From assembly GCA_013216135.1 (NCBI GenBank), contig JABSOS010000002.1, positions 62,001 through 126,000 of the forward strand: a DNA stretch of 64,000 nucleotides. The letters run 5' to 3'. The DNA comes from Candidatus Caenarcanales bacterium. Lineage in GTDB: Bacteria; Cyanobacteriota; Vampirovibrionia; LMEP-6097. The notes under the pieces are model-generated. The model did no database searches, was not told the origin of the DNA, and saw only the letters and a list, made by a program, of their open reading frames with translations. The position numbers and the translations under genes are program-made. Below are positions 18,512-35,956 of the stretch, piece by piece. How positions within the stretch are numbered: the first letter of the stretch is position 1; each line of letters opens with the position of its first letter.

Positions 18512-19987
18512 TTACCCCTGCACATGCATATCCAAAATCTTCTGCTTATAAGACTTCGCCTCCGGCGACTTCTTCACAGCCCAAAGATCTTCTTTAGCTT
18601 TCCTATAGGAACTTTCATAATCCACAATTGGATCTAAGTAATTATTAAAGAACAAAGATTGCTCACCTGATTTTCTAAGCTTATGAACCAGTTCTACTGG
18701 GGTATCTTGCAGCTCAGGAACCCATTTTTTTATAAACTTAGCTTCAGCATCCTGTCTCTCAGACTGTAAAAATGGATTATAAATCCTTATCGTATTCACT
18801 CCAGTAGTTCCAGCCTGCATCTGCAGCTGTGGATAATGAATCCCAGGTTCATAGTCTAAAAACACACGAGCTAAATGATCTGCAATACATCTCCAATCCT
18901 GCCACAGAATATGAGTAAAGAAGGAAGCTAGCATCGCACGCATTCTAAAATTAATATATCCAGTAGCTCTAAGACAACGCATAGAAGCGTCTACAAGAGG
19001 AAAACCAGTCATTCCATTTTCAAAAGATTCGATTAATTCATGGTTTTCTTCTGTTCGAATACAGTTAAACGCTGGATTCTGATTCATAAATTCCATTTCA
19101 CACTCACTTTCAAACTTCTGAATAAAGTGAGAGCGCCAGAATAGGCGTGATTTAAAAGCAGAAAGATTTCTTTTCTCCCAGGAATCTTCACTAGCATTAT
19201 ATTTATATTGATAAGCACTAAAGACTTGTTTAAGGCTGAGATTCCCCCAACTCAAATACGGCGCTAGACGACTACAAGACTCTTCAGCAAGCCCTGGCTT
19301 TGAAATATGTTTATTATAATTCTGGAAACGACCGTGGAAAAAGCTTTTCATGAAAGCTCTTGCGATAGTCTCACCACCTTGAAGCACTTCACTAAAGTCA
19401 ATTTTCACAAAAGGTTTAATCTGTTTAAATGAAAGGTTTTTAAACTCTAACATTAACTGCGCCATTTCAAAATTAGAGATATTTACAGTGTTTAAATCAT
19501 TTAAATTAAAATCATACTCTCTAACCTTAAGCTTAGCTAGAAACTTACTATTCCAAGACTTACGATTTTGAAGTCCACGCATCACTCCATTAAGCTCACA
19601 TTCAATCCAATTAATACTTGAATATTCAAAGAATGCTTTTAAACGTAAATCACGATCATAACTAATAGAATTCCCAACCTCTTCATGAGAAAATACGTTT
19701 ACAATTTCAAATTTTTGTTTAAGCTTAACAACTAAATCTTCAATAGTTTCTTCAAAGACATAAAGACGCTTCTTGTGATCCCTTAACCTAAGTTCCATAT
19801 CTAGTAAAGAATCATAGATAAAGTGTTCATGAAAATCAGACCAATCCGCGTTCATGGTGATATCAGGTTCAAAACTGTAAAAAAGAAATATCGGTAAACC
19901 AGCTTCTATAGCTCTAAAAATCGGTTCGTGATCACTTAAACGTAAATCACGCTTCAACCAAACCAAAGATATCCTCTCTTTTACCAA
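18512..19987 (-). CDS. Cryptochrome/photolyase family flavoprotein
   Basis: The 491-residue protein begins with the photolyase N-terminal pattern (LVWLKRDLRLSDHEPIFRAI). The C-terminal FAD-binding domain has GFPLVDASMRCLRATGYINF (the active-site helix region), WRCIADHLARVFLDYEPG and NTIRIYNPFLQSERQD. Conserved aromatic and Asn positions fit FAD binding and light-driven electron transfer. The phrase HYPQLQMQAGTTGVN replaces the usual WQW-AGTGTDA of classical class I photolyases, marking a separate subfamily. It may be a repair photolyase or a cryptochrome. It follows a small membrane protein gene by 12 bp on the same strand. Confidence 0.85.
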   Translation of the reverse strand: MVKERISLVWLKRDLRLSDHEPIFRAIEAGLPIFLFYSFEPDITMNADWSDFHEHFIYDSLLDMELRLRDHKKRLYVFEETIEDLVVKLKQKFEIVNVFSHEEVGNSISYDRDLRLKAFFEYSSINWIECELNGVMRGLQNRKSWNSKFLAKLKVREYDFNLNDLNTVNISNFEMAQLMLEFKNLSFKQIKPFVKIDFSEVLQGGETIARAFMKSFFHGRFQNYNKHISKPGLAEESCSRLAPYLSWGNLSLKQVFSAYQYKYNASEDSWEKRNLSAFKSRLFWRSHFIQKFESECEMEFMNQNPAFNCIRTEENHELIESFENGMTGFPLVDASMRCLRATGYINFRMRAMLASFFTHILWQDWRCIADHLARVFLDYEPGIHYPQLQMQAGTTGVNTIRIYNPFLQSERQDAEAKFIKKWVPELQDTPVELVHKLRKSGEQSLFFNNYLDPIVDYESSYRKAKEDLWAVKKSPEAKSYKQKILDMHVQG

Positions 19988-28474: not shown

Positions 28475-29209
28475 TTAACTAGCTTTAAAATGAGCTTCAA
28501 GCTGGTCAGCTGTACCGATGTATTTGCCATCTAAATAAACTTGAGGAGTAGTAGCAGCACCAGTTACATTAACCATAGATCTATTAGTAAGTGCATTACT
28601 TAGTTCTATTTCTTCATAGATAATACCTTTATCATTTAAGAGATTTTTAGCTCTAGCACAGTGTGGGCAACCTTTTCTAGTAAATAAAGTAGCGAAAGAA
28701 AGAAACTTAACATTAGGGTTAATAAATTTTAAAATCGTGTCTGCATCTGAAACTTCAAAAGGATCACCTTCTTTTTCTGGTTCAATAAACATCTTCTCAA
28801 CTTTTTTATCTTTAACCAGCATAGAATAACGCCAAGATCTTTTACCAAAACCAATTGCTGACTTATCTACTAAAAGTCCCATCTCTTCAGCAAAAGCACC
28901 ATTTCCATCTGGAATTAATGTAATATTGTCAGCTTCTTGATCACGTGCCCATTCATTCATCACAAATGTGTCATTAACTGACAAACAAACGATTTCATCG
29001 ACACCATTTTCTTTAAAAATCGGAGCAAGCTCATTATATCTAGGTAAGTGAGTAGAAGAACAAGTCGGAGTGAAAGCTCCAGGAAGAGCAAAAACCACTA
29101 CTGTTCTATTTGCAAAAATATCATCACTATTAATGGTTTTCCAAGTACCATCTTCGATTACTTTAAATTCAATATTTTTTATAGTTTCACCTTCACGGTT
29201 TTTAAGCAT
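28475..29209 (-). CDS. Peroxiredoxin-glutaredoxin fusion (Prx5-Grx hybrid)
   Basis: The 244-residue protein fuses two redox domains. Residues 1-165 are a Prx5-type peroxiredoxin with the peroxidatic Cys50 in LPGAFTPTCS. Residues 172-244 are a glutaredoxin with the CPHC active site (Cys181 and Cys184) and the substrate-binding TTPQVYLDGKYIG. Such hybrids reduce hydrogen peroxide and organic peroxides with glutathione, using their own glutaredoxin domain. It implies that this organism makes or imports glutathione or an equivalent. A clear AAGGAG site lies before the ATG at 29209. Confidence 0.95.
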   Translation of the reverse strand: MLKNREGETIKNIEFKVIEDGTWKTINSDDIFANRTVVVFALPGAFTPTCSSTHLPRYNELAPIFKENGVDEIVCLSVNDTFVMNEWARDQEADNITLIPDGNGAFAEEMGLLVDKSAIGFGKRSWRYSMLVKDKKVEKMFIEPEKEGDPFEVSDADTILKFINPNVKFLSFATLFTRKGCPHCARAKNLLNDKGIIYEEIELSNALTNRSMVNVTGAATTPQVYLDGKYIGTADQLEAHFKAS

Positions 29210-29268: not shown

Positions 29269-31371
29269 TTAATTATAAGCATCAAAATCTTTAGGGCTAA
29301 GGTGTCTTAATTTACTTACATCAATTTTCCCGTCTGGAGTAAAACCAAAAACAAAGCCCCGATATCCAATGCAATGTGGTCTTAAGAAATTTTTGTTTAG
29401 GGTTATAGTATTATTAGTTAGATTTTTTATGGTAACACTTCCACCTAAATCTTCTAAGTCCCCTGAGCTATCAAAAGAACTTAAAAGTGAACTCAATTCA
29501 TTTAGTTCAGGAAATAAATCATCTATTTTATCTTTGACTTCATCATTTTGTTCAGATATTGACTCACTTATATCAGAAGCAATATCTTGCGCCTCCGAAC
29601 TGTCAACATTAGCAGGTAATGATGATAATAATTCATTAAGTCTATCAAGAGATTTTATTAATTTAGTCTCAGCCTTAACTACAGATTTAAAGCCTTTCTT
29701 TAATTTGATGTTTACTATCATTCTTCTTGCTAGATAGACTCTAGTAACAAATGAGTAACGATGTTTTTTAGCATGAAAAGAACGATTAAGAGCAAGTAAT
29801 CTATCCTGTGCAAAATAGCGGAGTTTATCCCTTCCAAGACTAAAGGGATAAAGATCTAAAGTGGAAGACCTAAGTTTCTCAGCACTATTAGTAAAAATAT
29901 CATTAGCGTGAGGCTTTAGTTCTTTAACATCTAGGTAACTCAAAAGTTTAATGTGAGGGTCTTTAATATCTATCTGAAAACGATGATCATTAAAAAAGTC
30001 ATGTTCTTTTTCAAATATTTTTTCTAATTTCTCTTTCTCTGCTTTCCTAACTTCAATATCTCGCAAAATATCAAAATATTCTTCTAATTCCTGCTTTAAG
30101 TTATTATCAACTACTTTGTCTAAGAATGTTTTTCTATTACTCTCATCTAAATTTCTTACTTTTTTAATACTCTTATACTTTGTTGCATTCTTTGGGCTTA
30201 ATTCAATTAAGTCTTCTTCAAGTAATTTATCTAGCTTTTCTTCTAGCCCCTCTTTTATTCCTTTTGCTTTTTTAAATTCCCCTAAGGCTTTTAAATATTC
30301 CTTTTCCTTCTTATTTAGTTCTTTAATTTTCCCTTCAACATCTTTTAAATTCAGAATTTTATTTAATACCGTTACATAATCAATGCCATAAACTTCAGCT
30401 TCAGGAATACTAATACTAACTTCTTTAATAGCTTCTCTTTGAATACCTAAAAACTTTGCAAAAATTCCAAATAACCAGCTAGCTCTTAAATCAATTACGC
30501 TATGAGTATCAATTGTAAAATCAGGAAAGTTTACTTTCCGAGTAAAGTGGTTATTCTTTTCTTTACTAAGAAAAGCAGGATGATTAGGATCAAAAACTTG
30601 TTCTGAGATTTGAGAAATTTTTATTGCTGCTGTTATATTACTAATATCTTGTTTAAGGGTAAAATCATGATCTAACTTAACTCTACTTGGAAGCTTAAGG
30701 CTCTTAGTTCCTAAAGTTATTCCCTTAGGGAAAACGGTCTTTTGATTTAGAATACATTCTTCATCAAGAACTGCATCTTTTTTTAGTTGACTTTTCAAAT
30801 TAGTATTTGCCGCTATTGTTTTACCATTTGCCTTTATTTCTATAGGTAATACAGTATTTTCTCTAATATGAATAATAGACTTTTTAGATATTACCGTTCC
30901 TATCGGTAAACTAATATTTTCAGGTAAGAAAAAGTCAGGTGGGAAAACAAAAGCATTTTCGAAAACGCTACCAAATGGAAGTGTAGTTCCTTTAACAAGT
31001 GAGCTTCCGGCTTCAATAGTATATGGTAAAAGATTAGATTCGTGGAAAACCAGTCTAGGTGGATAAAAGCCATCTTCCAATTCATTATTTTGATCTATAG
31101 CATCTTCTAAATAATTTCCTTCTTTATATTTCCCATCACCGTATATCGATAATAATTCTCTTTGAAAATCTAAACTAACTACGTGTTGAGGAGCAGTATC
31201 TTTAGGCTTAAGAATAAAAACATCACCAACTTGAATATCTTCAGATGGTGGATAAACAGGAACAATATTATGCTTAGCTAAATATTTACCCCATTTTTTT
31301 GAGATTGGTCTATTACAGCCTGTTAATAACAAGACTGGTAATAAAATTAAAAACAATATATTAGATTTCAT
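29269..31371 (-). CDS. Large lipoprotein with coiled-coil middle, function unknown
   Basis: The 700-residue protein has a lipoprotein signal peptide with lipobox LLTGC (Cys19). Residues about 110-240 contain repeated short beta-type phrases of the LP-GT and LP-GS kind (KGTTLPFGSVF, LPENISLPIGTVI, FPKGITLGT). Residues about 340-480 are strongly Lys/Glu-rich coiled coil. The C-terminal part is Ser/Asp-rich and ends in a beta-rich segment. It is probably anchored on the outer membrane or cell surface. No known family is recognised. The opposite-strand KAP gene starts 65 bp away. Confidence 0.7.
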   Translation of the reverse strand: MKSNILFLILLPVLLLTGCNRPISKKWGKYLAKHNIVPVYPPSEDIQVGDVFILKPKDTAPQHVVSLDFQRELLSIYGDGKYKEGNYLEDAIDQNNELEDGFYPPRLVFHESNLLPYTIEAGSSLVKGTTLPFGSVFENAFVFPPDFFLPENISLPIGTVISKKSIIHIRENTVLPIEIKANGKTIAANTNLKSQLKKDAVLDEECILNQKTVFPKGITLGTKSLKLPSRVKLDHDFTLKQDISNITAAIKISQISEQVFDPNHPAFLSKEKNNHFTRKVNFPDFTIDTHSVIDLRASWLFGIFAKFLGIQREAIKEVSISIPEAEVYGIDYVTVLNKILNLKDVEGKIKELNKKEKEYLKALGEFKKAKGIKEGLEEKLDKLLEEDLIELSPKNATKYKSIKKVRNLDESNRKTFLDKVVDNNLKQELEEYFDILRDIEVRKAEKEKLEKIFEKEHDFFNDHRFQIDIKDPHIKLLSYLDVKELKPHANDIFTNSAEKLRSSTLDLYPFSLGRDKLRYFAQDRLLALNRSFHAKKHRYSFVTRVYLARRMIVNIKLKKGFKSVVKAETKLIKSLDRLNELLSSLPANVDSSEAQDIASDISESISEQNDEVKDKIDDLFPELNELSSLLSSFDSSGDLEDLGGSVTIKNLTNNTITLNKNFLRPHCIGYRGFVFGFTPDGKIDVSKLRHLSPKDFDAYN

Positions 31372-31435
31372 TTTGAGCTTCGAGTTGATTATTTTAGCAA
31401 TTTAGTTTTATAAAAGTTAAGCTAAACTGTTTTTT

Positions 31436-33679
31436 ATGACGACTCAAAGAAATGAATCTTCTAGTCTAATTAAAATAATTAATCAAAATAATGAAGGAAT
31501 AGCAGCTATAGAACAGCTATGTCGTTATGACGGCTGGGGAATGGCTAAACAATGGTTTGGACTTGCACGTTGTTTTTTTATAGGTTTGCTTTTTGCTTAT
31601 CTTTGGTATTTCTTTTCTAAAATCATTGGAACAATATATAACGATAAGCATCTACTGAGTATTGCAAATAATCTCAGTGTCCTTTCTAATTTTTTGAATT
31701 TTACATATAAATTTATTATCTCGAATAAAGTAAGTTCAATTATTCTATGTGGAATTCCAAGTTTGTTTTTCTTATGTAAATTATTCAAATCTTACTGGAA
31801 TGAAATCTCAGCGAATTTTTTGAAATTTAACCAAGTGGATAAGATGACATTTCTATTATTGGGGTTTTTAAATGCTTTAGATATTTACTATGAATATTTT
31901 GACTCGGTGTCTATTTTAACTATATTGTCTTGTAACTTTATTTTCTCTTTGAGATTCTGGAAATTTATAGCTAATTTACAGAAGGTAAAACTAGGTAAAT
32001 CAAAACCACTAACTCAATTTATTTTTTTAATAATCTATTTAATATCATTATACACACTCTCTATAATGTTAATAAGGCTAAATAATATACATTCAGCAAT
32101 CGTATCCATGACCTTAATACTGCAATTAATCTTTCTGTTTTCAATGCAAATACATTATGTGTGTTCTAATAATTCAAGGCTAATAGCATCTAAAGCTTTT
32201 TCAATTTATAACTCTATATTTAAAATTGAGTTGCCTATAATCTCAATAGTATTTTTAAGCTTCTTATATGTTGTTGTATTCAGTAAACGTCCCCAAGACT
32301 TAAACTCAATAATAATGGCTACCTCTATGTATAGCTGGTTAGGACTATCTGGGTGGTCAGGCTGGATTCTATCTAAGCAATGGCTCAATAAAGCTAGAAG
32401 ATTTAAGCTAGTTATGTTCATTACTCCAGCATTAATGGTAATAGTGTTCCCATTAATCAAATTTTATGATGACATTAAGCCTTTGGGAATCAAAAATACT
32501 ATTTTCCTAAACTTAATAGAATTTCAAATATACATTTTAATTTCCTACTTCATTTTAATTGGAGTAATCACTCAAATATTTGTTGCTAACACCATTAGCA
32601 AATCTTTAAAGGAATCAAAAAAAGAATCTTTAGTACCTATAGAAGAACCAGTTACAGATTTAGATCAAGTAGAAAAAATAGTCGGATATGAAAGTGATTT
32701 TTTAAAAACAGTTCATAATTTTATAGAAAAAAGAATAATCCATTATCCTAAACAAAACCTCCAAAATAGATCACAGGTGTATGCAATTAATGCTTCATGG
32801 GGGGCTGGGAAAAGTTCTTTTATTAGTTTAGTAAAATCTGAGCTTATAAAAGATAAAAAGATCATCTGGGTAGATTTTAATCCCTGGAATTACCTTTCAG
32901 GGGAAAAGATGATCCTTGATTTCTTTAAAACATTAGATAAAAGGATTCGTGAAATTTACTTACATGGACTAGGCAGTAACTTAAAAAAATATATCAATCT
33001 CCTATCAGTTTCACACTCTGCAAAATTACTAGACATCTTTAACCTTAATATAGAACTTGCTCAGAATACATCTAAAGCAGACTTAGCTAGCTTAAAACAA
33101 GATATAGAGACTAAGTTAGGCTCTATCAAAGAAAGAATTATTATAGTTATAGATGATATAGATAGGTTACCACCAGACATGGTTTTAATAATTTTACGTC
33201 TAGTAGGAATAACAGCAAACTTCCCAAACATATTTTTCATATTAGCTATGGATTACAAAAAAATAGGAAGGCTAATAATACAAGAATTAGGAAAGGATTA
33301 TGAAAATTATTTACAAAAAATTGTAAATGAAAATATTTCTTTACCTTCCTGGAGTGCAAAAGATTTAAGAAAGTTTTTCTGGCATTACACACTTAATGCA
33401 AGAGAAGAATTTCAAAATTTAACAGATGCTAAAGGAAAAAAAATAGTTAAAGAATTAAAAGATGCAAAAAAATTTATCTACAATAAATTAGACAAATCGC
33501 ATATAAACTTGACTCCAAGAGACATTAAACAACTAGCTTCAACATACATTTATTCTGTAGCTGAAGTTTTTGATGAGTCAATCAAAACAAATAAAAGCTT
33601 CGATAGAAAAGCTTTATTAGAAAAGATAGAGATACACTTTGAAAATTGTTTTCGTGAGCAGTACTCCGAACAAACCTAA
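31436..33679 (+). CDS. Membrane-anchored KAP-family P-loop NTPase
   Basis: The 747-residue protein has two parts. Residues about 40-390 contain roughly nine or ten membrane helices with short loops. From about 425 a KAP-type NTPase domain begins: Walker A NASWGAGKSSFISLV (GAGKSS at 456-461), then WVDFNPWNYL, and Walker B RIIIVIDDIDRLPPDMV near 566-580, with LTPRDIKQLAS near the end. KAP NTPases carry membrane segments and in some bacteria act in phage exclusion; elsewhere their role is unknown. Here the membrane part precedes the NTPase instead of lying within it. The gene stands alone beside a tRNA with a duplicated 3' end, a common insertion spot for accessory genes. Confidence 0.85.
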   Translation: MTTQRNESSSLIKIINQNNEGIAAIEQLCRYDGWGMAKQWFGLARCFFIGLLFAYLWYFFSKIIGTIYNDKHLLSIANNLSVLSNFLNFTYKFIISNKVSSIILCGIPSLFFLCKLFKSYWNEISANFLKFNQVDKMTFLLLGFLNALDIYYEYFDSVSILTILSCNFIFSLRFWKFIANLQKVKLGKSKPLTQFIFLIIYLISLYTLSIMLIRLNNIHSAIVSMTLILQLIFLFSMQIHYVCSNNSRLIASKAFSIYNSIFKIELPIISIVFLSFLYVVVFSKRPQDLNSIIMATSMYSWLGLSGWSGWILSKQWLNKARRFKLVMFITPALMVIVFPLIKFYDDIKPLGIKNTIFLNLIEFQIYILISYFILIGVITQIFVANTISKSLKESKKESLVPIEEPVTDLDQVEKIVGYESDFLKTVHNFIEKRIIHYPKQNLQNRSQVYAINASWGAGKSSFISLVKSELIKDKKIIWVDFNPWNYLSGEKMILDFFKTLDKRIREIYLHGLGSNLKKYINLLSVSHSAKLLDIFNLNIELAQNTSKADLASLKQDIETKLGSIKERIIIVIDDIDRLPPDMVLIILRLVGITANFPNIFFILAMDYKKIGRLIIQELGKDYENYLQKIVNENISLPSWSAKDLRKFFWHYTLNAREEFQNLTDAKGKKIVKELKDAKKFIYNKLDKSHINLTPRDIKQLASTYIYSVAEVFDESIKTNKSFDRKALLEKIEIHFENCFREQYSEQT

Positions 33680-33733: not shown

Positions 33734-33752
33734 AGTTGGCAGGGCATGAGGG
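33734..33752. repeat. Copy of the tRNA-Arg 3' end (att-like direct repeat)
   Basis: AGTTGGCAGGGCATGAGGG matches 33916-33934 exactly. That second copy contains the CCA end, discriminator base, 3' acceptor strand and start of the T arm of tRNA-Arg. The copies are in the same orientation, 182 bp apart. Such repeats usually mark tRNA-directed integration or a decayed tandem tRNA. Confidence 0.7.
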
Positions 33753-33808
33753 TTTAGGGGAAGCGCGCACTGAATGAGCCCAGCGCAATAGAAACTACCC
33801 CGAAGGAA

Positions 33809-33840
33809 TCAAAAAACAAGATCAAAATCTTGTTTTTTGA
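33809..33840. terminator. Bidirectional intrinsic terminator
   Basis: TCAAAAAACAAGAT and its perfect complement form a 14-bp stem with a 4-nt loop. The A-run on one side and T-run on the other let it work in both directions. It lies between the KAP gene and the tRNA. Confidence 0.8.
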
Positions 33841-33869
33841 CAATGGATTCTCAATTCCAGTCGGCTGAC

Positions 33870-33911
33870 ATAAATAAAATACCCGGCAAAACTGCCGGGT
33901 ATTTTATTTAT
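33870..33911. terminator. Strong hairpin terminator downstream of tRNA-Arg
   Basis: Two 19-nt arms pair perfectly around a 4-nt loop, with a GC-rich core (ACCCGGCA/TGCCGGGT) and flanking A/T-rich ends. The hairpin begins 8 bp past the tRNA 3' end on the minus strand and is the likely terminator of the tRNA transcript. Confidence 0.88.
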
Positions 33912-33918
33912 ATTTAGT

Positions 33919-33995
33919 TGGCAGGGCATGAGGGATTCGAACCCCCGACGTCTCGGTTCGTAGCCGAGCCCTCTATCCAGCTGAGGTAATGCCCT
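33919..33995 (-). tRNA. tRNA-Arg (anticodon ACG)
   Basis: The 77-nt cloverleaf reads on the minus strand. The acceptor stem pairs AGGGCAT with ATGCCCT, the D stem pairs CCTC with GAGG, and the anticodon stem CTCGG/CCGAG frames loop CTACGAA with anticodon ACG. The T arm is GGGGG-TTCGAAT-CCCTC, the discriminator base is G and the CCA end is encoded. The A at position 34 would be deaminated to inosine to read CGU, CGC and CGA codons. Confidence 0.97.
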
Positions 33996-34081: not shown

Positions 34082-34549
34082 TTACTGTTCACTCATTTTA
34101 TTAAATCTCAAATGCTCAAGATTTGAATTCATATACTCTAAGAGTTCAACTTGTTTTTTTAAGAAAAATGAATAAGTAGTCTTAGTATTTTGCGTGAATA
34201 TAATCGCAGAGAAACTTAAAATCGCAAAAACTGAAAATATTGAAATAAATATAGCTACATTTGAAAGTAACTTTGCTGATCTAATATTTTTCAACAATAA
34301 AATTTCATGCAAACATTCAGTATTAACATAAAATTTGTCACCATTTTTAGACCATAATTTTTCAAACAAATTATTATAGGTAACTAATATCTCGAGTTCT
34401 TCATCTTTTATAATCGGATACCCTCTAGAAGCTAAAAAGCTAAGCAATTCCTCTTCTAAAATCCCCCTAGTAGCATTTTTTAGTGCAAAAACCATCATTG
34501 ATTCATAAAAATCTGGTTTAAATATTTGATACCAGTACTGTGCAATCAT
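34082..34549 (-). CDS. Hypothetical protein with one membrane helix
   Basis: I do not recognise this 155-residue protein. The N-terminal 95 residues are soluble and mixed, and a single hydrophobic helix lies near residues 97-119 (LLSNVAIFISIFSVFAILSFSAIIF). A short charged tail follows. There is no signal peptide, so the soluble N-terminus is probably cytoplasmic. It lies upstream of tRNA-Arg on the same strand and is divergent from the DASH-type cryptochrome gene, 72 bp away. Confidence 0.6.
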   Translation of the reverse strand: MIAQYWYQIFKPDFYESMMVFALKNATRGILEEELLSFLASRGYPIIKDEELEILVTYNNLFEKLWSKNGDKFYVNTECLHEILLLKNIRSAKLLSNVAIFISIFSVFAILSFSAIIFTQNTKTTYSFFLKKQVELLEYMNSNLEHLRFNKMSEQ

Positions 34550-34621: not shown

Positions 34622-35956
34622 GTGTCTGTAAAATCACTAATTTGGTTTAGGAAGAACCTTAGAATATTTGATAATCAATGCTTAGATGCCGCACTAAGAA
34701 ATTCAGATAAGACCGTAGCTGTTTTTATTATTGAACCAAGCTTTTTTGAAGACACAAAATATGGTTTTAAGAGATTAAGCGACTTTAGACTAAGTTTCCT
34801 TTATGAAAGTATTGAACAGTTAAAAGCTAACTTGGAGCTCTTAAATATTCATTTAAATATTATTTTAGGTGATAGTTTTTCAGCTTTATCTAAAATCATA
34901 AAAGAAGAAAAGATCACTGATCTATATTATGAAAAAGATATTGCAGCTGAAGAAAGAGCATTAGAAAAGAAAGTCAAAAAAACATATAGTAATATCAACT
35001 TCAATAAATTTAACGCAAACTATATTTTTAAATATGACGAAATCAAAAGTAAAGTTAAAAGACTTCAAGATACTTTTACTAAATTTAGGAAATATCACGA
35101 ACAAGATTTTTTAGAATCTGAGAAAGTAATGACTAATACTAAATACAATCACCAAGCTGAATCAATAAGTTTGAATAATGAAAACTATCATAATGATGAT
35201 ATAAAAATATTAGATGATCTTCAAACCTTAAAAAATCAAATTCATGTTCTTAGTGATACCCGTGCCACATTCATTTACAAAGGTGGTGAAGAAGCAGGTT
35301 TAGATAGAATCAAAAGCTATATCTGGGAACAAAAGTCAATTAAACGTTATAAAAGAACCAGAAATGGTCTTATGGGTAGAAACTTTTCAAGTCGTTTCTC
35401 AGCCTGGCTTGCAAATGGTTCAATATCTGTAAACTTTGTAATGCATGAAATTGAGAAATTTGAAAATGAAGTATTGAAGAATGATTCAACCTACTGGTTA
35501 AAGTTTGAATTACTCTGGAGAGAATATTTCAGATTACTTTATGGGAAGTATAAAAAAAGTTCATTCTTCTTAAATGGTCCTCATGAAAGAGAAGTATATA
35601 ATGAATTAGATGAAGACCTTTGTAGCAAATGGATAAACGGTAAAACTGGACAAGCCTTCATCGATGCAAATATGATTTGCTTAAAACAAACTGGATATCT
35701 ATCAAATCGAGGTAGACAAAATGTTGTTGCTTACTTCATCCATGAATTAAAACAAGATTGGCGCTTCGCTGCATCCTATTTAGAATCAATGTTAGTAGAC
35801 TATGACATCTTTAGTAATTGGCTAAACTGTTCATATATAGCAGGTTTGATGGGTACAGAAAAAGCACACAAATTTGACCTTAACCACCAAATTAAAAACT
35901 ATGATCCCAAAGGACAATTTATTAAGCACTGGCTCGATAATGAAGACTTAAGCTAG
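34622..35956 (+). CDS. DASH-type cryptochrome/photolyase
   Basis: The 444-residue protein starts at GTG with the photolyase pattern LIWFRKNLRIFDNQCL. It has the FAD-domain motifs FKGGEEAGL-like (IYKGGEEAGLDRIKSYIW), FELLWREYFRLL, SNRGRQNVVAYF and the C-terminal DYDIFSNWLNCSYIAG and NYDPKGQFIKHWL. SNRGRQNV and the aromatic-rich WREYFRLLY region are marks of cryptochrome-DASH proteins, which bind FAD plus a folate antenna and repair CPDs in single-stranded DNA. It is a second, distinct flavoprotein of this superfamily in the window. It appears to be a single-gene unit. Confidence 0.88.
   Translation: MSVKSLIWFRKNLRIFDNQCLDAALRNSDKTVAVFIIEPSFFEDTKYGFKRLSDFRLSFLYESIEQLKANLELLNIHLNIILGDSFSALSKIIKEEKITDLYYEKDIAAEERALEKKVKKTYSNINFNKFNANYIFKYDEIKSKVKRLQDTFTKFRKYHEQDFLESEKVMTNTKYNHQAESISLNNENYHNDDIKILDDLQTLKNQIHVLSDTRATFIYKGGEEAGLDRIKSYIWEQKSIKRYKRTRNGLMGRNFSSRFSAWLANGSISVNFVMHEIEKFENEVLKNDSTYWLKFELLWREYFRLLYGKYKKSSFFLNGPHEREVYNELDEDLCSKWINGKTGQAFIDANMICLKQTGYLSNRGRQNVVAYFIHELKQDWRFAASYLESMLVDYDIFSNWLNCSYIAGLMGTEKAHKFDLNHQIKNYDPKGQFIKHWLDNEDLS

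What the first reader, a model, noticed from the sequence alone, without database searches (positions are those of the whole stretch)
31436..33679. Membrane KAP NTPase at a tRNA locus: candidate defence gene
The protein joins about ten membrane helices to a KAP NTPase domain. Members of this family have been linked to phage exclusion, and the gene stands alone beside a tRNA with a duplicated 3' end, a typical insertion site for accessory islands. The helices precede the NTPase as a block, an arrangement I do not know from a characterised system.
Basis: partly seen in the sequence, partly recalled or inferred. Interest (0 to 1): 0.6.

Follow-up and report, generated by a model that had tools for sequence, protein, structure and literature searches.

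The report
Orphan membrane NTPase beside tRNA element
A lone membrane-anchored KAP ATPase found in no sampled relative sits next to a tRNA gene, and the repeat that made the site look like an island border is really the end of a separate, 182-base structured element that recurs behind tRNA genes throughout this bacterial family.

Summary
The gene is real: 747 aa, intact KAP NTPase domain (PF07693, 2e-36) behind an N-terminal membrane block of 7-11 predicted helices. It and its divergent 700-aa neighbour have no full-length relative in the 8 family or ~290-380 class genomes searched, while redoxin, photolyase and tRNA-Arg around them are conserved: an accessory pair. A defence role is plausible but indirect: in one relative the same tRNA-Arg 3' side holds a TIR gene and HepT/MNT genes; in another, a serine recombinase. 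The protein meets no PifA, QatA or Tmn definition. N-terminal helix blocks are not unique: seven other KAP sequences of this family (six distinct lineages) have one, mostly of four helices.

The 19-bp tRNA duplication does not bracket the gene. It closes a 182-bp unit holding a structured element (26-pair model, 20 pairs with compensatory changes) found in all nine family genomes, nearly always just 3' of tRNA-Ser, -Leu or -Arg genes, each copy ending in its own tRNA's 3' sequence, and in none of 373 other class genomes. One site compared between two relatives shows such a unit, with cargo, inserted at the tRNA 3' end. Rfam has no match. This element is the more novel part; its function is unknown.

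The parts
31436..33679 (+). ORF of 747 aa: polytopic membrane protein with C-terminal KAP NTPase domain
31538..32623 (+). N-terminal membrane block (residues ~35-396), 7 strong to ~11 predicted helices; weak internal repeat GWGMAKQWF.LAR / GWILSKQWLNKAR
32765..33541 (+). KAP NTPase domain, residues 444-702
32792..32821 (+). Walker A ASWGAGKSSF
33140..33166 (+). Walker B with IDDID
29269..31371 (-). divergent orphan gene, 700-aa predicted lipoprotein, no family match; second half of the accessory pair
33734..33752 (-). displaced 19-bp copy of the tRNA-Arg 3' end, 3' arm of the structured element
33736..33872 (-). structured element (model R1/R2), 138 bits
33873..33915 (-). bidirectional terminator-like hairpin between tRNA and element, part of the 182-bp unit
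   Evidence: sequence
33916..33934 (-). 3' end of the intact tRNA-Arg plus 3 bases, first copy of the duplication
33919..33995 (-). tRNA-Arg(ACG)
34082..34549 (-). 155-aa membrane protein, conserved beside tRNA-Arg in two relatives
34622..35956 (+). photolyase/cryptochrome, conserved flank (60-61% identity)

Best explanation
Two separate things lie here. (1) An accessory gene pair, 29269-33679, on the 3' side of tRNA-Arg(ACG): an orphan membrane-anchored KAP NTPase and a divergent orphan lipoprotein. Shown: intact ATPase motifs, N-terminal polytopic block, absence from all sampled relatives, conserved genes on both outer sides. Inferred: the membrane block anchors and couples the NTPase to the inner membrane; ATP binding or hydrolysis drives assembly or a conformational change that alters the membrane or blocks entry in response to an intruder, i.e. 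a conflict/defence role like other KAP proteins. (2) A 182-bp unit between tRNA and gene: terminator plus a structured element whose 3' arm is a copy of the tRNA 3' end. Shown: family-wide, tRNA-linked, covarying, copies follow their own tRNA, and one comparison between two relatives shows insertion at the tRNA 3' end. Inferred: it is the conserved terminal (attachment) part of small integrative units that insert at tRNA 3' ends and restore them; it did not bring the KAP gene.
For: KAP domain and motifs. Orphan status; redoxin 28475-29209 conserved at 58-78% in four relatives but elsewhere in their genomes, photolyase and ORF 34082 conserved beside the tRNA. Same tRNA 3' side in G005 holds TIR, HepT, MNT, CopG/RelE; in G001 a serine recombinase. 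Element: 9/9 family genomes, beside tRNAs, 93% paired cells against at most 63% for slid partners and 20/26 pairs with two-sided changes, 3' arm matches own tRNA better than others in most copies. Insertion: in G001 tRNA-Arg runs straight into the recombinase gene; in G005 a remnant of the same recombinase (24 aa, 71%) follows the second element, with element-TIR-HepT/MNT-element in between.
Against: Defence is guilt by location: no experiment, no defence gene beside the window gene, and five KAP genes in this genome, at least some in ordinary neighbourhoods. Synteny between these genera is poor on both sides of the tRNA, so a break there is weak evidence of insertion. The element could be an RNA gene rather than an attachment site; the terminator before it argues against that but does not exclude it. 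The two-relative comparison rests on one locus and a 75-bp match. Two element copies (G001:C21, second copy in G005) have no adjacent tRNA.
Confidence: 0.45

Rival explanations
1. The membrane KAP protein is a host physiological protein (membrane organisation, signalling or cell-surface function with the divergent lipoprotein), merely lineage-specific and fast evolving, not a defence gene.
For: Five KAP genes in this genome and four in G001; one such KAP is conserved in place between G001 and G005 next to RND-pump genes; divergent lipoprotein neighbour; PADLOC and NCBIfam hits are domain-level only.
Against: No orthologue in any relative; long orphan branch 2.27; the same tRNA side holds conflict genes in a relative.
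Confidence: 0.35
2. The KAP gene is cargo of a classical tRNA-Arg genomic island whose far attachment site has been lost.
For: Tandem copies and cargo between two elements exist at this tRNA in G005; orphan genes next to the tRNA; a serine recombinase at this tRNA in G001.
Against: No second duplicate or element left of the gene within the window; no recombinase gene in the window matches G001's; the only duplicate lies between gene and tRNA.
Confidence: 0.2
3. The element is a structured non-coding RNA carrying a tRNA-like 3' arm, made by read-through from the tRNA promoter, comparable to the rtT repeats of the E. coli tyrT locus (comparison from memory).
For: Covarying multi-helix structure; central part alike within a genome, as if it had one trans-acting partner; 182-bp unit with a 19-bp tRNA end recalls the 178-bp tyrT repeats.
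Against: A strong terminator hairpin separates tRNA and element in nearly all copies; the CCA end has decayed in several copies; no Rfam match including RtT.
Confidence: 0.3

Closest known systems
Tmn, single-gene KAP defence protein
   Same: KAP NTPase combined with membrane helices, single gene
   Different: Tmn is described as having two unusual transmembrane domains (PMC11846954); here 7-11 helices lie before the NTPase and none between the Walker motifs. No Tmn sequence was compared directly.
PifA (KAP phage-exclusion protein of plasmid F)
   Same: KAP domain matches the PADLOC PifA model, positions 37-311, E 5e-37
   Different: The rest of the 720-position model is not matched; the window protein's membrane block lies outside the match
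QatA (QatABCD)
   Same: P-loop region similar
   Different: 31 bits against a cut-off of 600; no Qat partner genes beside it
Other membrane KAP proteins of the same bacterial family
   Same: Helices N-terminal to the NTPase
   Different: Mostly four helices, Walker A near residue 170-214 instead of 453; they do not group with the window protein with support
E. coli tyrT 178-bp repeats / rtT RNA (from memory)
   Same: Repeat unit of similar size carrying a duplicated tRNA 3' end
   Different: No sequence or Rfam match; here many tRNAs, one conserved core, and a terminator precedes the element
Integron attC sites (from memory)
   Same: Structured site, lineage-specific core, next to toxin-antitoxin and TIR cargo at one locus
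   Different: Anchored at tRNA 3' ends; attC boxes and an integron integrase were not looked for

Membership tests
KAP NTPase (PF07693) | Match above the curated score, Walker A and B present | tested here: met
   125.9 bits against cut-off 20; motifs
[quoted passage not shown]
   No hydropathy peak between Walker A and B; present in L058-L060
PifA | Full-length model match | tested here: not met
   Only positions 37-311 of 720
Tmn | Two transmembrane segments in a KAP protein | tested here: not met
   7-11 N-terminal helices; definition from PMC11846954; no direct sequence comparison
QatABCD | QatA above cut-off with QatB, C, D beside it | tested here: not met
   31 of 600 bits; neighbours
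Anti-phage defence system | Protection from phage on expression | not testable with these tools
   Needs a bench test
Anti-phage defence system | Homologues clustered with defence genes | tested here: inconclusive
   No homologues of the full protein; same tRNA site in G005 holds TIR and HepT/MNT; ATPases with DUF4143 near other KAPs are too common to count (21-43 per genome)
tRNA genomic island | Gene bracketed by the tRNA 3' end and its duplicate | tested here: not met
   Duplicate lies between gene and tRNA
rtT RNA (RF00391) | Covariance-model match | tested here: not met
   No RtT row at E up to 10 over 12 element loci
Integron attC | Core boxes and integron integrase | not tested
   Not searched

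The most novel reading that the evidence does not exclude
The 182-bp unit is a founding example of an undescribed class of mini-elements: a structured sequence that ends in a copy of the 3' end of whichever tRNA it sits behind, is spread over Ser, Leu and Arg tRNA genes of a whole Melainabacteria family, keeps a core that is alike within a genome, and can carry conflict genes (TIR, HepT/MNT) between copies, an integron-like cassette arrangement anchored on tRNA genes.
Probability: 0.3. Interest if true: 0.75.

Novelty: new variant of a known kind. Interest (0 to 1): 0.5.

Why it matters
The KAP gene adds an unusual membrane architecture to a family with proven phage-exclusion members, in an almost unstudied non-photosynthetic cyanobacterial lineage. 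The element next to it gives a testable case of how accessory and defence genes may gather behind tRNA genes: a structured, tRNA-end-bearing unit present at the same tRNAs across a family, with one site compared between relatives with and without it.

Tried and rejected
Island bracket around the KAP gene: no third att copy and no second element in the window. PifA, QatA, Tmn membership: not met. Solved-structure relatives: none at E 1. AlphaFold on the single sequence: pLDDT 39.9, too poor for a fold search, so none was run. Enrichment of DUF4143 ATPases near KAP genes: dropped because they number 21-43 per genome. Element matches in other Melainabacteria: the weak hits in family f4 had no tRNA beside them; the six loci read look mostly like ordinary terminators. 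GTDB pattern hits outside the family and the viral hit are taken as chance: the model does not match them. Rfam weak hits are below gathering scores. Left-arm complementarity to the whole tRNA 3' end: inconsistent beyond the 5-bp helix of the model. The first Walker-motif scripts were too strict, replaced. One search was a trivial alignment without use.

Full report
What is there. The ORF 31436-33679 encodes 747 aa. Residues 444-702 match the KAP NTPase family (PF07693, E 2.4e-36, 125.9 bits), with intact Walker A (ASWGAGKSSF) and Walker B (IDDID). The first ~400 residues hold seven strong hydrophobic segments; a single-sequence AlphaFold run draws about eleven long helices there but at pLDDT 39.9, so the count stays open. 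No Pfam, NCBIfam or PHROGs family covers this block. Two stretches, GWGMAKQWFGLAR and GWILSKQWLNKAR, hint at an internal duplication (BLASTP E 3e-05 between the halves).

Whose genome. Contig lengths and coordinates of relatives G001, G005 and G007 equal records JAGWWP01 (REEB446), DUDT01 (LMEP_6097) and CANHDW01 (Candidatus Caenarcaniphilales RE-15aug16-7).

Distribution of the gene. Full-length homologues were not found in 8 family genomes or 382 class genomes, in phages (27), viral contigs (29), or by a close-relative scan of GTDB (30); the best plasmid hits cover only the KAP domain (28). The N-terminal block alone gave one marginal hit in 386 phylum genomes (89). The divergent neighbour 29269-31371, a 700-aa predicted lipoprotein, is equally an orphan (one marginal hit in 289 genomes). 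Outside the pair, redoxin 28475-29209 is conserved at 58-78% in four relatives, at other places, and tRNA-Arg, ORF 34082 and photolyase 34622 are conserved together in G001 and G005. The pair is therefore best read as an accessory insert on the tRNA 3' side, with the caution that synteny between these genera is short on both sides.

Architecture compared. Among the KAP proteins found, classical ones have two helices between Walker A and B (L058, L059, L060, L063, L070) or none. Seven KAP sequences of this family (G000 C3 and C24; G001 C35, C46 and two on C6; G005 C1, an orthologue of one of them) have N-terminal helices, in most three to four detected, with Walker A at 170-214. In a tree of KAP domains the window protein is a long branch (2.27) that joins none of them with support.

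Is it defence? Indirect support only. At the same tRNA-Arg 3' side G005 has a TIR-domain gene, a HepT-like and an MNT-like gene and a CopG/RelE-type pair, and G001 has a serine recombinase. Another tRNA locus of G005 carries YhcG, RhuM and AAA genes that match PADLOC candidate-defence models. The window gene itself has no defence gene beside it. PADLOC's PifA model matches only the KAP part, QatA is far below cut-off, and Tmn, a proven KAP defence protein, is described as having two transmembrane domains (PMC11846954). I put defence or conflict at somewhat under one half.

The duplicated tRNA end. The 19-bp repeat (33734-33752, 33916-33934) lies between gene and tRNA; its copies are 182 bp apart. 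A search of the own genome with this stretch hit two tRNA-Ser loci. Each has, after the tRNA and a terminator, a related sequence ending ...TCCCCTAAACCCT followed by a copy of that tRNA's own 3' end. A covariance model (R1) found the element in eight of nine family genomes; a second model (R2) added the ninth. With two exceptions (the second copy in G005:C23 and G001:C21) the strong matches lie just 3' of a tRNA: Ser(GCT, GGA, TGA), Leu(TAG), Arg(ACG, TCT). No true match appeared in the other 373 class genomes; the weak hits in family f4 had no tRNA beside them, and the six read looked mostly like terminators. On 19 copies, 93.2% of pair cells are standard against 52-63% when partners are slid, and 20 of 26 pairs show two-sided changes; for example GGGG/CCCC becomes GCGG/CCGC. 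The alignment was fitted to the model, which favours the structure, so these counts lean upward, but the margin over the controls is large.

Nature of the element. The central part is alike within a genome and differs between genera, while the 3' arm follows the local tRNA. At tRNA-Arg, G001 runs from the tRNA straight into a serine recombinase gene; in G005 the tRNA is followed by element, TIR, HepT/MNT and a second element with a tRNA-end copy, and only then by a remnant of the same recombinase end (24 aa, 71%). This pair, one site without and one with the unit, shows insertion at the tRNA 3' end with duplication of that end. I read the element as the conserved terminal part of small tRNA-targeting units. 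An RNA gene like the rtT repeats remains possible; Rfam gives no match. In the window the KAP gene lies beyond the displaced tRNA end, that is, outside the unit.

Verdict. Observation partly confirmed, interpretation partly supported. The gene is a new variant of a known kind with plausible but unproven conflict function; the neighbouring element is the more surprising find.

Noticed in passing
window 33736-33917; L092, L104, L083-L089, L093-L097, L106-L107, L155, L169: Family-wide structured element behind tRNA genes, ending in a copy of the local tRNA 3' end; covarying; no Rfam match
   Followed up: partly
L048 4786-6860 (G005:C23): Two element copies enclosing a TIR-domain gene and HepT/MNT genes beside tRNA-Arg; remnant of a serine recombinase beyond the second copy
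   Followed up: partly
L047 1411-2907 (G001:C44): Serine recombinase gene whose 3' end overlaps the 3' end of tRNA-Arg
   Followed up: partly
L095/L121 9760-10176 (G002:C12) and L119 12780-13379 (G007:C25): Tandem element copies behind one tRNA; in G002 the two units have different terminators but nearly the same core
   Followed up: no
L110 1501-1804 (G005:C16): Element at tRNA-Ser(TGA) whose central hairpin is interrupted by another inverted-repeat sequence
   Followed up: no
G000, G001, G005: 21, 43 and 33 matches to DUF4143 ATPases per genome, a large expansion
   Followed up: no
window 34622-35956 and 18512-19987; G000:C50: Three photolyase/cryptochrome-like genes in one non-photosynthetic genome
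   Followed up: no
G000 C3, C20, C24, C34: Four further KAP NTPase genes in the same genome
   Followed up: partly
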